DNA of 64,000 bases from Rhizoclosmatium globosum. Taxonomy: Eukaryota; Chytridiomycota; Chytridiomycetes; Chytridiales; Chytriomycetaceae. Below, piece by piece: positions 29,777 to 37,937 of this stretch. The stretch is from NCBI GenBank assembly GCA_002104985.1, contig MCGO01000173.1, positions 1-64,000 of the forward strand, given 5' to 3'. A program made the translations under genes and the position numbers. Within the stretch, counting starts at the first letter, position 1. Every line of letters begins with the position of its first letter. The notes below the pieces were generated by a model. That model did not search any database, was not told the origin of the DNA, and worked only from the letters and a program-made list of their open reading frames with translations.

Positions 29777-32700
29777 ATGAGTGACCATGAAGCTACAGCC
29801 ATACGACGGCAACTGCGAGAACCGCGAATCAAATCAATTATTAAGGAAACCAAAGTCGTATCTGAGGCCATTAATCAAATAGTCCGTGAATCTCATCTCA
29901 ACACTCCACTTGCATCAACAGTCATTGCCCAAGCAAGAGCTTCTCTCAAAAACCCAACGCGACCTTTTACACCTGCACCTGCGAATAGAAGTACTAGTCG
30001 AGATGGAGAGCTACCAGCGATCGACGGGTAAGAATATCTTGCAAATGTTTAATAATTTGCTTAAGACGCAACAGACTTCGTGTATCAGCGGCTCCACACC
30101 ATCGCCATCGAATTATTCTACCAGCACGGGCACTCCATCCAAGAAGATTGGATCCGCTTCAGCATCCTCAGCTCCATCAAGCGAGCTCCAAACATCATGA
30201 TCATAATCCCAACCTTGCTCCAATTCCTCCACCACAGAAACCAAACCAACCCCACACCAGTCCAACCCGCAAAATTCCAGCCACGAAAACCACGAATTTC
30301 ATATTTCCTGAAGGAGATATTGTTTCACCCGATTCCAAAACCACTGCTCCAACATTCCCAACCACCCTTCAATCGCTTCTTCATCTCCTCACGTCCTTCC
30401 CTGAAACATTCAAACACGTGAATACATCATCGACACTCCCACATACCCTCTCCCACCTCCATGAAACCCTCATGAACGTCCACACTCAGCTCACATCTAT
30501 CCAATACCTTCGCGACCCATCCACTGAAATTCCGAAACCCGTACTGAAACAGCACAGAGATAAAGTCGTCGAATCCCTTATGAAATGGATGCAAGTCCCG
30601 GAAAGCTGCGGGATGGATGTGACGGTGGAAGTTGAAATGGCGGTTGGTGTTTGTGGTCTTGTGATACGGTTGACGAGAGACGATAGGGTCCTTGGGAACG
30701 CATTCAAGTTGTTGTTTAAGTTGAGTAAGAGTGGAGCGAATGATGGCGCATTTGGGAGGTACAATATTCCAGGTAAAATTTTAACTCTGCGGTTGCCAGT
30801 AAGAGGCTAATTTCGGTGTCGATAGATGGAATATCACTTTATTTGAATCACTTGACGACGGACAAACGTCTCTTGATAGCGCATAAATGCGACATGGCTA
30901 TTTATGCAGTCGCAACCTTGAAAAACTTGACAACAGGGGGTGAACTATCGTTCGAGTCTGAAAAAGACACTGAGCCATTAATATCGATCATGTCGAGAAT
31001 GATGTGGTTCTTGATCAAAGTGGGTGTTCATAATTCTGTTCCCTATCAGTCAACCTGAATATTTACTTCGCAGAATGACGCAATTACTTCCAAAACAAGC
31101 CAACAAAGAGTCTCACAGACAATACAGCTGTTTATCCAAATTACTCTCACATTCCGTAACCTCCTCACTCTCCACCAGTCCCAAACTCAAACCCAACTTC
31201 TCACTCCAATCCCATGCGACACCATGTCAGCTTCAACGAAACCACTTGAAGTCCTCATAACTATATTATCAACACCTGGACTCTTGGAGAGCCAAGAACT
31301 ATTACTCACAGTTTCACGAATCCTCAGCAAAATCAGCCTCGATGAAACATGTCTATCAGCAATGAGCAGCCTGGAGACATGGAACAAACTCGTCGACCTC
31401 GTCATTCAATTCCAAAACAAGAAGGTAAACGGCTGAATTTTCATACTGTTTTTTCGACGCTGAAACTTAAAAAGATTGATCCACAGCCTCTCCTTGTTCG
31501 ACTCCTCTTTGTACTTGGGAACTTGAGCACACCGAATGACGCGGATCCTGTGCAGCAAGACTATACAGAGTATTGTGACGATTTTGTGGCTCTGTTTTGG
31601 AAGTATGGGAAACGGGTTGCGCGCGACTTGCGAAAGGAAATTGGATATGCGTGTTCGATGAATGGGGATGGTGGGTTGGAGGAGGAGGATGGGTTTGAGA
31701 GTAACGAAAGTGTTGATGAAGAGAGTAGCGTGTTGGATGGAGGAAAGAAGGGGAAGCATGGGAAGAGGAAAGTTAGTGATTTCGTTGTCGAATGTGAAGA
31801 TGTTTTGATCAAGGTGAGTTGATTTTGTTCATGCTCAGAGTTTATTAAACTGATTTCAAAATAGATTACGAGACTGATTTCAAACATGTCGATCCATCCT
31901 CCCAGTGGAGAACAAATGTCGCAAATGATTGAACTTGAGTTGATGTTGCAACTGCTTGAACTGGCGTGTGCATCTGAATCAAGTCTTGTTCGACATGAAG
32001 AACTTGTTCTTAACCTCGCTGGTGCCCTTGCCAACTTCACTTTCTATCAAAATGAGCAAAACTGTTTGTTTCAACAGTCTATTCAAGTGCTGGAATGTGA
32101 GTTCCCCCCTTTATCTTGAATTTGTTTTATTGACAGAAAAACCAAGTGATGCTCCCACTCCTTCTGCACGAAAACAATGAGCTTGTTGACCAAGCAACAC
32201 GAGTATATTCCAATTTATCTCGTCCGTCGCATTCCATCGATTCTTCGGACAATTCCATCTACAATTGGATGGCTCAACATCGAGGAGGTATCGAACTGCT
32301 CACAATCCTTTTGGAGCATCCATCCAGATCGATACTCATCAACGTTTGTGGAACTCTACTAAATCTCTTTTGTCCATCTACTGTCTCCCGAAAGGGACCT
32401 TTCCAGTGTGCCATGACGCTTGTGAAATGTGGAGGAATTCACAAGTTACTCGATCTTGTTCAGCAAGCTCTCAGTGATGGGGACTTGGTGTGCACAAGTG
32501 TCGCGTGTAAATCACTAGTGTGTTTGATTGAGCTCCAGGAAGTTAGTGGAGAAGAATGGCTGACTGATGAGGAGGAAGAACGACTGGGTATGCTCATGAT
32601 TGGATATTTAGATATAGTGGATCCTCCGTTAATGGATCCACCACCACTGTTGAGAATGCAGAGTCAACAAGATTTGTTCAAGGGAGTTGAGGGCGAGGAA

Positions 32701-32889
32701 GCAAGTCACCTGCATTACGCGCGTGAACGAAATGAAGATAAAATTTCTGGGGAAGAAAAGGAGTTAATAGCAGTCGCCAAGCGTGTATTGCACGTTTTGG
32801 GATGTAATGGGGATATCAACGATGCTTTGCTCGACGAAGGACCCGAGATAGGCCCCAGAATTTCTATTAGAAAAGAAGTTGGAATATAA
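29777..32889 (+). CDS. Armadillo-repeat protein, ARMC2-like (about 900 aa)
   Basis: Multi-exon gene beginning MSDHEATAIRRQLREPRIKS. The first intron begins at 30028. The N-terminal third is polar and Pro-rich. The rest is built of armadillo/HEAT-like helices, e.g. ITRLISNMSIHPPSG, EELVLNLAGALANFTFYQNEQN, ELVDQATRVYSNLSRPSHS, RSILINVCGTLLNL and ALVKCGGIHKLLDL-type segments. The order ISNMSIHPxxG, then NLAGALANFTFYQ, then ATRVYSNLS fits ARMC2, a protein needed for flagellar assembly (radial-spoke transport in algae, sperm tails in mammals). That role here is inference by homology. The C-terminus ends IGPRISIRKEVGI. Splice sites in the middle (30780-31440) are approximate. Confidence 0.72.
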
Positions 32890-33014: not shown

Positions 33015-35501
33015 ATGGGAGGCCAGACGATTACAATCACATCCGAGAGCCAAGTAAGTGCATTTAAAAGCAATTAAATAAGGTAGTTAAGCTGACACGC
33101 GCAAGTTCAACCAATTGATCGCTTCTCCTTCACTGACCATTGTTGACTTTACTGCAACTTGGTGTGGCCCATACAAGATGGTTGCCCCGCGATTCGAGGC
33201 TCTTGCGCAACAGAATCCGAATCTCAACTTTCTGAAAGTCGATGTTGATGAGCAAAAGGGAATTGCAGCCCGCTTTGAAGTCTCTGCGATGCCCACGTTC
33301 ATGTTCTTCAAAGGCGGCGATAAGCTTGAACAGGTGCGTAACTTGTGTGTGTGTGTGTTTGGGTGTTTGTGCATTGGGTGTTTGTTACTGACTTGATTGG
33401 TGGGTTGGTGGTTGGTTTAGGTTGTCGGTGCGGATATTGCAAAGGTGGAGCAGCTGACCTCGTCGCTTGGAGCTGACACCGCTTCTTTGACTGCCGATGA
33501 ATTGAAGGCACTTGGAAACAAGGCGTTCACATCAGGAAGCCACTCTCTTGCCGTCACCTACTTTTCTCAAGCTATTGACAAGGACCCAAAGAACCACGTT
33601 CTCTACTCAAACAGGTAACTATTACCATGCCTCTTCAATTCAGTCGGCTTATTCGTATCATTAGATCTGCTGCTTACGCCTCCCTCCGCAACTACTCCAA
33701 GGCTCTCCTTGACGCTGAAAAGACTGTGGAGCTTAACCCAACTTGGCCAAAGGGTTACTCTCGTAAGGGTGCTGCATTGCACGGAATGGCTGAGTTCGAA
33801 GAAGCTGCCGCCTCCTACAAGAAGGCTCTTGAGTTGGAACCTGGAAACGCTGCCACCAAAAAGGCTCTTGAAGAGGCCGAAAACCTTGCTGAAGAGCAAA
33901 GACGTATGGCTGCCGAGCCAAAGGAAGATGTGAACGATATGGAAGCTGGTTAGTCACTAGTATCTGCTTGGGCTATTTCTCAACCCTCTTTTTCAGGTCT
34001 CGGAAAGCTCTTTGGTGGAGACGTTTTCGCCAAGATTGCTCAGAACCCAAAGCTTTCTGCTCTCCTCGCTCAGCCTGATTACGTCCAAAAGATTGCCGAG
34101 ATCCAAAAGAACCCCAGCAACATCAACATGTACATGCAGGACCCACGTATTATGAACACCATGTTGGGATTGATGGGATTGGATGCTCAAGCGATGGGTA
34201 AAGATGAGATGGACTCGAGATTCAAGGAGGAAGAGGAGGAGAAGCCAGCTCCAAAGCCAGCTGCGTCTTCATCATCTGCAAAGCCCGCACAAAAAGCCCC
34301 AGAGCCTGAACCAATGGAAGTCGAGGAGTTGTCTGAGGAGAAGCAGGCCCGTGCTGCCTCTGACAAGGCCAAGGACGCTGGAAATGCTCTCTACAAGAAG
34401 CGCGCTTTCGCTGAAGCTTTGGAGAAGTACAACGAAGCTTGGGAGTTGGACTCAACAAACATTGCCGTCTTGACCAACAAGTCTGGTGCGTTAAATCAAA
34501 AAAAATGTTTAATATACCCTGTAACTAATTTGTCCACCTCAAAAGCTGTCTTGTTCGAAATGGGTGACTACGATGAATGTATCAAGGTCTGTGACGAAGC
34601 CGTCGAGAAGGGTCGTGAGATCCGCGCCGACTTCAAAATCATTGCCAAAGCCTTTGGTCGTATGGGTTCCGCCTACTCCAAGAAGAACGACCACAAGAAC
34701 GCCATCAAGTTCTACGAGAAGTCCCTCTCTGAGCACCGTACCCCAGATATCCTCACCAAGCTCCGTGAAGCTGAAAAAATTCAGAAGGAAGCCGAGAAGG
34801 AGGCATACCGCAACCCAGAGTTGGCTGACGCTGCACGTGAGATTGGAAACGAGTTGTTCAAGAAGCACTCATACGCTGAGGCTGTGAAGCACTACACCGA
34901 GGCCATCAAGCGTAACGACAAGGACCCAAGGAATTTCTCCAACCGTGCTGCCTGTTACATCAAGTTGATGGCTCTTCCAGAAGCCGACAAGGACTGTGAC
35001 GAAGCGCTCAAGTTGGACCCTAACTTCATTAAGGCTTACATTCGTAAGGCTTCGATTTTGTTGGCCAAGAGGGACTGGACCAAGACGATGGATATGTGTA
35101 ATGAGGCTAAGGAGAAGGATGTTGAGGGCAAACACACTGCTGAAATCGATGGAGTTGTGAGTAACTTTTATTTTTCTTGCCCAAAACTGTTGGCTAATGT
35201 CAAATTTAGATGGTTAAAGCTTACGCCGGTCTTAACGAGGTACAATCTGGAGGTGGTAACCGTGAAGAAATCTTGGCCCGTGCTATGCAAGACCCAGAAG
35301 TCCAACAAATCATGGGTGACCCAATCATGAAGACCATCTTGCAACAAATGCAGGAGGACCCTGCTGCTGCCAGAGAGTAAGTACTTTGAGGTTGTGCTTA
35401 ATTTGTCACTAAAATAATCTCTGTGCAGCCACATGAAGAACCCAACAATTGCGGCCAAGATCAGAACCTTGATCAACGCTGGAATTATTCAGACTCGTTA
35501 A
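33015..35501 (+). CDS. Thioredoxin-Sti1 (Hop) fusion co-chaperone (694 aa)
   Basis: Eight exons: 33015-33053, 33106-33333, 33421-33614, 33665-33948, 33997-34485, 34546-35156, 35210-35376 and 35429-35501, total 2085 nt. Residues 1-108 form a thioredoxin fold ([46 protein letters not shown]). The active site reads C33-G-P-Y36, so the second cysteine is missing. At S111-LTADE the protein enters a full Sti1/Hop: TPR1 (about 115-225), DP1 (about 250-310), an acidic/Pro linker, TPR2A (about 350-475), TPR2B (about 490-605) and DP2 (about 625-694, [22 protein letters not shown]). Sti1 bridges Hsp70 and Hsp90 during client transfer. The fused Trx may add a redox or mixed-disulfide client-binding function (inference). 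The junction lies inside exon 3, so the fusion does not depend on a doubtful splice. Confidence 0.88.
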
Positions 35502-35623: not shown

Positions 35624-36163
35624 ATGCTCGACAACTTTGACTTCCAAGTGTCCTACACCAACAGCACGTGCGATACCTCGATGGCATGGGCCATCAATTT
35701 CAACCTACAAAGCCCATGCACTTCAAACACGCTAAACCCAGTTTGTGACCAAAGCGGAGATTCGGCTCCAACCAGTTACGGCTGTGCCTCCGAAGCAACC
35801 CTCCCGAGCATCGTCACCGCCTTATTCCAGCCAAAAAGCCACTTCATCTACAAAACCACCTTCAACTCCACAGACTGCTCTGGAACCATCCTCCACTACA
35901 ACACCATCGCCCTCAACACGTGCATCGTGTCCTCAACCACGTCGCAGATGTTTAAGCTCGAAAATAATATCCATAACCAGGTTGCTGCGATTTATGGGTT
36001 TCAGTCGAACCACTGTTATGGCGCTGCAGATGTGAACCCGACTATTTATGCGTTGGACGGGTCGTGTCATAAGCTCTCGGAGACGTCGTTTACTTTGAGT
36101 TTGGCGGGTTTGGCTGGAGCTACGTTGCAGATGGGGAAGAGTGCTATGAAGCTGGGGCGTTAG
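35624..36163 (+). CDS. Hypothetical Cys-containing protein (179 aa)
   Basis: Single ORF starting MLDNFDFQVSYTNSTCDTSM, about 120 nt after the end of the Sti1 fusion. It has about nine cysteines spread along the first 150 residues and several N-glycosylation-type sites (NST), which would suit a secreted fold, yet no signal peptide is visible. A hydrophobic stretch (FTLSLAGLAGATLQM) lies near the C-terminus. No family recognised. Confidence 0.6.
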   Translation: MLDNFDFQVSYTNSTCDTSMAWAINFNLQSPCTSNTLNPVCDQSGDSAPTSYGCASEATLPSIVTALFQPKSHFIYKTTFNSTDCSGTILHYNTIALNTCIVSSTTSQMFKLENNIHNQVAAIYGFQSNHCYGAADVNPTIYALDGSCHKLSETSFTLSLAGLAGATLQMGKSAMKLGR

Positions 36164-36444: not shown

Positions 36445-36735
36445 ACTTGGTGGTGTTGATTGAATTTGGTTGTTTTATGTGGCACTTTTGATCCGATCTT
36501 GTCCGTATTTATAGTAGTTCCTGTTTGTTTTGATCGTAATAATGATTCACTTTTTCGTTCGGAGCTGTTCGATCGTTGTTCCCCTTCTTTTATTGCGAGG
36601 TTCAAAATTGGATGCCGCAACACCAGCCAATTACTGTGCTTCGTATGGTTGTGACTCATCAATTCCACTAACCCACACCATTAACAATCTTTCAATTACC
36701 TTGATTGTACTTAAAATCTCGACTCAAAGAAAATC
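36445..36735. promoter_or_regulatory. Divergent intergenic region with TATA box
   Basis: TATTTATA at 36506-36513 reads as a minus-strand TATA box for the 48 aa gene, at the usual distance for this family. I see no box for the receptor gene on the right. Confidence 0.45.
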
Positions 36736-37937
36736 ATGGGATTGCCACACGACCAACTCGAGCAAATCCAACATCTCGTTCGAGGGATATGTCCATTTTC
36801 CACAGCAAGCAATCTAGCTGTAATAATAACTGTTCTCGTGACAAAGAGCAAGCAATCGAATTTAGGATGTCTTCAAGCCATTCTCGCCGTTATTGAGTTT
36901 TGGCTGTCGATTTGATTTGTTGGATGGTTGGAAACTCTATCGCGCCAAATAGTACTCTGTGTTCGGTTTTTGGGACTCTGCATCAGTACTCAATAAACGC
37001 GTCCAGTTGTTGGTCGTTCATGATCGCGCTTCACTGCTATGTGATTGTTATACACAACCCAAAGTTGGCCAGCTCGTTGTGGCGATATTACATAATTTAT
37101 GGTTTTGGTATGCCGGCGCTTTTGACTATCGCGCTATATATTTCACAGGCTATTCTAAATCGAGGAACTGTAACTGGCGATGCGGATTATCAGTGCTGGA
37201 TAGCATCACAATATCCCGAGCTACGCGTTATATTGTACTTCCCACTGTTGTAAGTCAATCAATTTTATTTTTTTGGTTTCTTCCATTGAGGCGAATTGCG
37301 CGACAGATGGCTTCATTTCCTTGGGATTCTCTTTTTCTACCTCCGAATCTTGGTAATGATTCAAACAAGAACACGGGAGCTGGCTTCAAGTCAAGACAAA
37401 ACAAATATAGATGAAGGACTGCTTGCAGTAAAAAGCGATGGCGCGGATACAAGTCGGTCAACAATCCCTGCATCACAATCCTTTTCAGGACCAGCTACAA
37501 ATCCTAATCCAGTGACACATCAAATAATTTCCGGAGATTTCAGTCCTGAGGCGTCAATAGCGCATCAGCTTCCCCGTTACTCCTCTCCAATCAAACACAA
37601 ACACAATCCAAATGTCAATGAACCAGCTGTTCCTTCAAGACTGACAGTAACAGAAAGCGCTCCGGCCGCAAAAATGATTAGTTCCCGGAATAAGCTCATA
37701 ACGAAAACCTTTATTGTATCCGTTGGCTGTTTGATTTCATGGATTCCAGCCACAGCTGTCCGGGTCCTTTTGATCATACCCGGATCAAAAGTCCCATTTT
37801 GGCTCAGTTACTTAATGGCCTTGGGATTTTCACTGAGCGGGTTGTTCAACTCTACGGCGTTTTTAGTTGGGATTTTGTGGGAGAAATGGCCCAAGACTCG
37901 ACCGAAAGCGAATGGAGGCGTGGATTCGTTGTCATAA
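36736..37937 (+). pseudogene. cAMP-receptor-like 7TM receptor, copy 1, disrupted
   Basis: Exons 36736-37249 and 37307-37937, closely similar to the intact copy at 38699-39889 at DNA level. The first exon starts MGLPHDQLEQIQHLVRGICP. At 36909-36918 a GATTT is directly repeated. This 5 bp gain puts a TGA at codon 60 (36913) and shifts the frame. Downstream, in the restored frame, all later motifs are intact (ASSCWSFMIALHCYVIV, DADYQCWIASQYPELR, SSRNKLITKTFIVSVGCLISW). The intron position equals that of the intact copies. Either a recent pseudogene or a sequencing/assembly duplication of 5 bp. Confidence 0.8.

What the first reader, a model, noticed from the sequence alone, without database searches (positions are those of the whole stretch)
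33015..35501. Thioredoxin fused in frame to a complete Sti1/Hop co-chaperone
The sequence shows a Trx fold ending near residue 108 and then, inside the same exon, the canonical Sti1 start (SLTADE) and all five Hop modules. Exon lengths sum to 2085 nt. Plants have a Trx joined to a Hip-like TPR protein (TDX), with Trx at the C-terminus. An N-terminal Trx on Sti1 is a different arrangement that I do not know as described. The active site is C-G-P-Y, so it cannot cycle like a normal Trx but could hold clients by mixed disulfides.
Basis: partly seen in the sequence, partly recalled or inferred. Interest (0 to 1): 0.85.

Follow-up and report, generated by a model that had tools for sequence, protein, structure and literature searches.

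The report
Thioredoxin fused to chytrid Sti1/Hop
In a chytrid fungus and several close relatives, Sti1/Hop, the protein that passes client proteins from Hsp70 to Hsp90, carries a redox enzyme (thioredoxin) welded to its front end, which suggests that disulfide repair may be built into the chaperone hand-over; the odd active site in this copy is absent from the second copy in the same genome.

Summary
The fusion is real. Window 33015-35501 (+) holds one eight-exon gene, introns GT-AG, 2085 nt, 694 aa: thioredoxin (1-105), short linker, then a complete Hop (TPR1-DP1-TPR2A-TPR2B-DP2). Trx end and Hop start share exon 3, which has no in-frame ATG; the first ATG after the Trx is codon 195. The organism is almost surely Rhizoclosmatium globosum; its public protein record starts at that codon and misses the Trx. 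A colinear second copy (96.9% DNA identity) carries the same fusion, and no unfused Hop was found in the genome. Nine database proteins share the fusion: eight from six other Chytriomycetaceae species, one clade with the window, plus one metagenomic. C-G-P-Y, however, is confined to the window copy: the second copy and all six relatives with a visible site read WCGPC. So the 'cannot cycle, traps clients' reading is not supported for the group. Best reading: a catalytic thioredoxin tethered beside the Hsp70-binding TPR1, working like a chaperedoxin (bacterial CnoX, plant TDX); function is inferred. The thioredoxin is of chytrid type and sits between STI1 and an upstream ARM-repeat neighbour that adjoins unfused STI1 in Dinochytrium. 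I found no paper describing it. New variant of a known kind.

The parts
33015..33053 (+). exon 1: start codon and first 13 residues ([13 protein letters not shown]) of the Trx domain
   Evidence: gene model, GT donor at 33054; intron at the same place and phase (phase 0, before F-N) as in the organism's stand-alone Trx gene on C2
33106..33333 (+). exon 2: Trx core with WCGPY site (Cys33 at 33163-33165)
   Evidence: Pfam Thioredoxin 8-95, E 1.1e-24; gene model; codons
33172..33174 (+). codon 36, TAC (Tyr) in this copy; TGC (Cys) in the copy on C168
   Evidence: comparison of the two copies
33421..33614 (+). exon 3: last Trx helix (residues 90-105, 33421-33468), linker (106-111, 33469-33486), start of Sti1 TPR1; no in-frame ATG
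33490..33896 (+). TPR1 (residues 113-231; interrupted by intron 33615-33664); carboxylate-clamp residues K118 N122 N153 K183 R187
   Evidence: alignment to Hop TPR1 in chain 7kw7_E, positions
33665..33948 (+). exon 4
33786..33788 (+). codon 195 ATG, first in-frame Met after the Trx; start of the 477-aa public R. globosum protein (P0005)
33997..34485 (+). exon 5
33999..34187 (+). DP1 (STI1-HOP_DP; residues 250-312)
   Evidence: Pfam PF17830 257-309
34356..34802 (+). TPR2A (residues 369-497; interrupted by intron 34486-34545); clamp K374 N378 N409 K446 R450
   Evidence: matches to Hop TPR2A chains, positions
34546..35156 (+). exon 6
34803..35218 (+). TPR2B (residues 498-618; interrupted by intron 35157-35209); clamp positions R509 N513 N544 K574 R578
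   Evidence: positions
35210..35376 (+). exon 7
35258..35495 (+). DP2 (residues 632-693; interrupted by intron 35377-35428)
   Evidence: second PF17830 stretch (also found at 35264-35371 in the genome search)
35429..35501 (+). exon 8 with stop TAA
35536..35541 (+). AATAAA, possible polyadenylation signal
   Evidence: read from sequence
31101..32889 (+). upstream ARM-repeat gene (3' part), neighbour of STI1 also in Dinochytrium, where no Trx lies between
   Evidence: tblastn of the merged Dinochytrium gene model P0018, 31101-32544; Pfam Arm in the piece 32134-32886

Best explanation
Shown by sequence: one gene encodes an N-terminal thioredoxin joined by about seven residues to a complete Sti1/Hop, and no other Hop was found in this genome. 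The fusion is shared by all seven Chytriomycetaceae species whose Sti1 falls in this clade, and the Trx has an active-type WCGPC site in each of the six relatives in which it can be read and in the second copy of this gene. Inferred: a copy of a chytrid's own Trx gene, without its tail, landed between STI1 and its upstream neighbour and was joined in frame to STI1's first exon. The protein still scaffolds Hsp70 (TPR1) to Hsp90 (TPR2A/2B), and the tethered Trx, recharged by thioredoxin reductase, reduces disulfides or other reversible thiol oxidation on clients held by Hsp70/Hsp90 (or on the chaperones), so that clients are passed on reduced. It works like a chaperedoxin of the reducing type (Caulobacter CnoX). 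The Tyr36 copy in the window would be a natural variant able to form, but not to resolve, mixed disulfides, next to an ordinary Cys36 copy.
For: Gene model and absence of a separate Sti1 start; same fusion in 9 database proteins; 9 fused rows incl. window form one clade, SH-aLRT 100, all of Chytriomycetaceae genera; only two full TPR2A-2B copies in the genome, both fused, other STI1-DP hits being ubiquilin-like or TPR-less; WCGPC in the second copy and 6 of 6 readable relatives, buried Asp27 in 6 of 6 and cis-Pro76 in 9 of 9; clamp residues kept in TPR1 and TPR2A (pattern from PMC2939883); fused Trx nests among chytrid Trx and shares intron 1 with the stand-alone gene; Dinochytrium has the same ARM neighbour beside an unfused STI1; thioredoxin-reductase-like exons are present (best 2.1e-78, none over the curated cut-off); low dN/dS between the copies (0.0024/0.042); model with confident Trx, junction and TPR1.
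Against: No biochemical or transcript data for this species. The window copy itself lacks the resolving Cys. Entophlyctis helioformis, filed under Chytriomycetaceae by NCBI, has an unfused model; its Sti1 groups with Batrachochytrium and others, away from this clade. P0011 groups with an unfused Cladochytrium tenue model, so the tree needs two changes. Support for a single Trx origin is only 69 and the outgroup did not root that tree cleanly. The Trx is less conserved (69% mean pairwise identity) than DP or TPR2 domains, though close to TPR1 (70.6%). The second Trx intron is one base out of register with the stand-alone gene. The model has pTM 0.50, so domain placement is not fixed.
Confidence: 0.6

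Rival explanations
1. Passive module: the Trx is redox-competent by descent but serves here as a folding/solubility aid, docking surface or N-terminal cap of TPR1; its chemistry does not matter to Hop function.
For: The window copy has Tyr at the resolving position. Between the two copies the Trx part has 2 non-synonymous of 4 changes against 2 of 18 in Sti1, not significant (Fisher p 0.14). The model of P0004 shows an ordered junction.
Against: WCGPC and the buried Asp are kept in 6 of 6 readable relatives; pure caps would be expected to lose the cysteines (general knowledge).
Confidence: 0.2
2. The redox target is the chaperone machine itself: the Trx keeps cysteines of Hsp70, Hsp90 or Hop reduced, making Hop a redox switch rather than a client reductase.
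For: Five Hop cysteines (two in TPR2A, three in TPR2B) are kept in 9 of 9 fused relatives; the Trx sits next to the Hsp70-binding TPR1.
Against: These cysteines are also common in the other rows of that alignment (TPR2A pair in 24 of 39), so no co-evolution is seen.
Confidence: 0.15
3. Monothiol trap: the CGPY site forms mixed disulfides with clients and cannot cycle; this is the protein's function.
For: Tyr36 in the window; mutating the second Cys is the way Trx substrates are trapped (PMC6282202 passage).
Against: The second copy is CGPC, as are 6 of 6 readable relatives; one base (TAC/TGC) separates the two, and an assembly error cannot be excluded.
Confidence: 0.06
4. Artefact: a separate Trx gene and a separate STI1 gene wrongly read as one.
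For: The public R. globosum protein (P0005) has no Trx, and gene models of Obelidium and Chytriomyces MP71 begin inside the Trx.
Against: Shared exon 3, no separate ATG, in-frame stop directly upstream of exon 3. Same fusion in independent genomes. P0011, a 688-aa fused reading frame on contigs of at most 2193 bases, looks like spliced cDNA (inference).
Confidence: 0.03

Closest known systems
Sti1/Hop (STIP1)
   Same: complete TPR1-DP1-TPR2A-TPR2B-DP2 order; clamp residues kept; best matches to chain 7kw7_E (Hop in the Hsp90-Hsp70-Hop-GR complex) and 3uq3 (yeast Sti1 TPR2A-TPR2B)
   Different: carries an N-terminal thioredoxin in place of the usual initiator Met; the five unfused chytrid Hops in alignment A1 begin M-T at the position of Leu112
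CnoX (YbbN), bacterial chaperedoxin
   Same: thioredoxin N-terminal to a TPR part; [quoted passage not shown])
   Different: TPR part is not Hop, no DP domains; E. coli CnoX has SXXC; separate origin inferred, since the fused Trx nests among chytrid Trx (no CnoX was put in that tree)
Plant TDX (tetratricopeptide domain-containing thioredoxin)
   Same: eukaryotic TPR protein joined to a thioredoxin; AtTDX is described as disulfide reductase and chaperone (PMC4661877 passage)
   Different: opposite order (Trx at the C-terminus), three TPRs, not Hop; plants
Plant TTL1-4
   Same: clamp-type TPR plus thioredoxin-like part (PMC2939883 passages)
   Different: Trx-like part at the C-terminus; not Hop
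Trx-TPR-DnaJ (DNAJC7-like) metagenomic protein P0127
   Same: N-terminal Trx (3-101, WCGPC) directly before a TPR co-chaperone
   Different: DNAJC7-like with a C-terminal DnaJ domain, no DP domain match; looks like a separate fusion

Membership tests
Sti1/Hop | three TPR domains and two DP domains in the order TPR1-DP1-TPR2A-TPR2B-DP2 | tested here: met
Sti1/Hop | carboxylate-clamp residues (K-N / N / K-R) in TPR1 and TPR2A | tested here: met
   K118 N122 N153 K183 R187; K374 N378 N409 K446 R450; pattern from PMC2939883. In TPR2B the first position is Arg, as in yeast Sti1
Sti1/Hop | phylogenetic placement among fungal Sti1 | tested here: met
   47-row tree
Sti1/Hop | binds Hsp70 and Hsp90 | not testable with these tools
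   needs pull-down
Thioredoxin (disulfide reductase) | Trx fold | tested here: met
   PF00085 1.1e-24; model of relative P0004 confident over the Trx
Thioredoxin (disulfide reductase) | WCGPC active site | tested here: inconclusive
   window copy WCGPY (not met); second copy and 6 of 6 readable relatives WCGPC (met)
Thioredoxin (disulfide reductase) | reductase activity, recycling by thioredoxin reductase | not testable with these tools
   thioredoxin-reductase-like exons present in the genome, none over the curated cut-off
CnoX chaperedoxin | Trx N-terminal to a TPR domain | tested here: met
CnoX chaperedoxin | CnoX-type C-terminal TPR domain (Pfam TPR_20, recalled) | tested here: not met
   not among the 18 Pfam families matched at E up to 0.001; the TPRs are Hop's
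CnoX chaperedoxin | holdase activity plus transfer of clients to GroEL and DnaK | not testable with these tools
   needs refolding assays
Plant TDX | N-terminal TPRs and C-terminal Trx | tested here: not met
   order is reversed; TDX order from PMC4661877

The most novel reading that the evidence does not exclude
The core Chytriomycetaceae have turned their Hop into an obligate eukaryotic chaperedoxin: every Hop-mediated Hsp70-to-Hsp90 transfer passes a built-in thioredoxin, so client reduction and client maturation are coupled in one protein. R. globosum in addition carries a natural substrate-trapping allele (CGPY) opposite a cycling one (CGPC).
Probability: 0.3. Interest if true: 0.75.

Novelty: new variant of a known kind. 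Interest (0 to 1): 0.55.

Why it matters
Hop is usually seen as a pure scaffold (general knowledge). A group of fungi whose Hop carries an active-type thioredoxin gives a natural test of whether Hsp70/Hsp90 clients need reduction during hand-over. It also parallels CnoX in bacteria, TDX in plants and a Trx-DNAJC7-like protein in a metagenome, suggesting repeated, apparently independent coupling of thioredoxin with TPR co-chaperones. Practically, the public R. globosum protein record lacks the domain, so annotation-based surveys of this species would miss it.

Tried and rejected
Separate Sti1 start: rejected on sequence. CGPY as the defining feature: rejected as a group trait. An unfused Hop elsewhere in the genome: not found. 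A fusion-specific cysteine pair in TPR2A (C-x3-C) as built-in target: 9 of 9 fused relatives have it but so do 24 of 39 other rows, so not specific. Relaxed selection on the Trx between the two copies: 2 of 4 against 2 of 18 non-synonymous, p 0.14, not shown. Exact sharing of both Trx introns with the stand-alone gene: only the first is exact, the second is one base off and in another phase; the intron structure of the UBX-linked Trx gene could not be read with certainty. Foldseek: none of the 50 listed titles names a thioredoxin; the top two are Hop/Sti1. Rfam search of the window: nothing at gathering threshold.

Rows left out or capped: one search scored only the 7999 candidates sharing most words and listed 120 of 1373 hits; one search listed 120 of 852; unlisted hits were not inspected. 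Other Chytriomycetaceae with genomes in the database (Chytriomyces confervae, C. hyalinus, Rhizoclosmatium sp. JEL0117; seen by other Trx proteins) had no Sti1 in the list, so they are not sampled. The Sti1 tree used 46 of the 120 proteins listed plus the window, chosen by me for taxon spread (P0005, a fragment, left out). The Trx tree used 48 proteins plus the window; P0006 and P0008, whose models lack much of the Trx, and P0009, close to P0007, were left out there. Both trees are quick ones with SH-aLRT only.

Full report
Gene. The claimed gene is in the window as described. Eight exons on the + strand, 33015-35501, with GT-AG introns of 48-87 bases, join to 2085 nt and 694 aa. Pfam gives Thioredoxin (8-95), many TPR matches and two STI1-HOP_DP stretches; the best-scoring solved chain is Hop in the Hsp90-Hsp70-Hop-GR complex (7kw7_E, residues 115-693). 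The clamp residues that hold the EEVD tails of Hsp70/Hsp90 (pattern in PMC2939883, passages) are present in TPR1 and TPR2A.

The joint. Exon 3 holds both the last Trx helix and the first TPR helix. It has no in-frame ATG, and an in-frame TAG (33418) stands directly before it; between codons 79 and 195 there is no Met. A Sti1-only product would therefore start at codon 195 and lack most of TPR1. The public R. globosum protein (P0005, 477 aa) starts exactly there, which I read as a gene-model error. The five unfused chytrid Hops in alignment A1 begin with a Met at the position of Leu112 here; Entophlyctis P0009 has Met there. The linker is residues 106-111.

Organism and second copy. The window lies on C83. 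C168:37472-39969 carries the same gene (one 5.66-kb match at 96.9% identity spans it and its flanks) with 18 synonymous and 4 non-synonymous differences: Y36C, D85E, Y158F, A343S (dN 0.0024, dS 0.042). Several other searches gave such pairs, so I take them as two haplotypes of a non-haploid assembly (inference). Y36C converts the window's CGPY to CGPC. Whether Tyr36 is a true allele or an assembly error cannot be decided without reads.

Only Hop found. A search with the TPR2A-2B exon found 10 matches: the two copies at 100%, and eight at 36-44% identity over 64-89 residues. Other STI1-DP matches are ubiquilin-like (ubiquitin-like, STI1 and UBA-like parts readable in L015, my reading) or show no TPR in the same frame (L013); L014 and L016 are their apparent pairs and were not read.

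Relatives. Of 120 listed homologues, eight carry both Thioredoxin and STI1-HOP_DP: Obelidium, Siphonaria, Physocladia (2), Podochytrium, Entophlyctis luteolus (2) and one metagenomic protein (P0011). A ninth, Chytriomyces sp. MP71 (P0008), starts inside the Trx. The active site is visible in six (P0002, P0003, P0004, P0007, P0009, P0011): WCGPC in six of six. In P0001, P0006 and P0008 the gene models miss it. A search with the Trx region of P0003 gave 57 matches; those with STI1-HOP_DP are these nine only, eight of them with a Thioredoxin call.

History. In a quick maximum-likelihood tree of the Sti1 part (47 rows; 46 of the 120 listed proteins plus the window) nine fused rows from seven species, all of genera that NCBI puts in Chytriomycetaceae, form one clade (SH-aLRT 100), sister to P0011 plus Cladochytrium tenue (83). 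C. tenue (Cladochytriales) has an unfused model, but from a 2772-base contig, so it may be cut short. The label needs two changes on this tree. By their gene models Chytridium, Dinochytrium, Phlyctochytrium bullatum, Irineochytrium, Blyttiomyces and Chytridiales JEL 0842 are unfused. A result against a simple family-wide statement: Entophlyctis helioformis, filed in Chytriomycetaceae by NCBI, has an unfused model; its Sti1 groups with Batrachochytrium, Globomyces and Terramyces (SH-aLRT 100), not with E. luteolus, so it may be misfiled (inference). In a Trx tree (49 rows) the fused Trx lie among chytrid Trx and need one change, support 69, with an outgroup that did not root cleanly. The organism's stand-alone Trx gene (C2) has intron 1 at the same place and phase; its intron before VVGAD is one base off (phase 1 against 0), and it has one more intron.

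Synteny. The Dinochytrium model P0018 (1112 aa) looks like a merger of an ARM-repeat gene and an unfused STI1. Its ARM part matches the gene just upstream of the fusion in the window, 31101-32544 (3e-50). The order ARM gene, STI1 is thus shared with Dinochytrium (Chytridiaceae), and here the Trx sits between them.

Structure. AlphaFold2 on Podochytrium P0004 with 84 rows: mean pLDDT 91, ten-residue blocks over Trx, junction and TPR1 all 92 or more, blocks below 70 only at 231-250 and 311-350; pTM 0.50, so relative placement of modules is not fixed. Foldseek finds Hop/Sti1 first.

Mechanism. Shown: architecture, conservation, no other Hop found in this genome, catalytic-type Trx in the relatives and the second copy. 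Inferred: the Trx, next to the Hsp70-binding TPR1, reduces clients (or chaperones) during Hsp70-Hsp90 transfer. [quoted passage not shown]); AtTDX is described as a reductase and chaperone (PMC4661877, passage). Replacing the second Cys traps substrates (PMC6282202), which is what Tyr36 would do in one copy. It is a member of Sti1/Hop with an added domain; it works like a chaperedoxin but is not a CnoX (its TPR part is Hop's).

Novelty. Literature searches over the held open-access library found no description (listings read, papers opened only for the passages cited). Most subscription papers are not covered. Trx joined to TPR co-chaperones is known in other forms, so I rate this a new variant of a known kind.

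Noticed in passing
protein P0127 (JGI metagenome, 13.8-kb contig): An N-terminal thioredoxin (WCGPC) fused to a TPR-DnaJ protein called DNAJC7-like by its source: an apparently separate Trx fusion to a TPR co-chaperone.
   Followed up: partly
proteins P0121, P0123, P0125, P0126; genome C2:650884-651150 and C267:809-1072: Chytrids, amoebae and metagenomes have thioredoxin fused to UBA/UBX domains; the window's genome has a Trx close to that of P0125 too. Thioredoxin seems a mobile module on proteostasis proteins.
   Followed up: partly
protein P0122 (Physocladia obscura): Thioredoxin in one model with a queuosine-salvage domain; may be two merged genes.
   Followed up: no
window 35627-36163 and L018 (C168:40000-45000): A small ORF without Pfam match just downstream; on the other copy's contig the matching region holds a 300-nt stretch in three diverged copies (66-100%).
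   Followed up: partly
L013 / L014 (C312, C35): A protein with an STI1-DP domain but no TPR in the same reading frame (L013 read); not identified.
   Followed up: no
window 36715-37937: A hydrophobic, possibly seven-helix receptor-like gene downstream; the piece tested (37290-37934) had no Pfam match.
   Followed up: no
Entophlyctis helioformis P0025 versus E. luteolus P0007/P0009: Two species filed in one genus fall far apart in the Sti1 tree, one with and one without the fusion; the fusion could serve as a marker of the true Chytriomycetaceae.
   Followed up: partly
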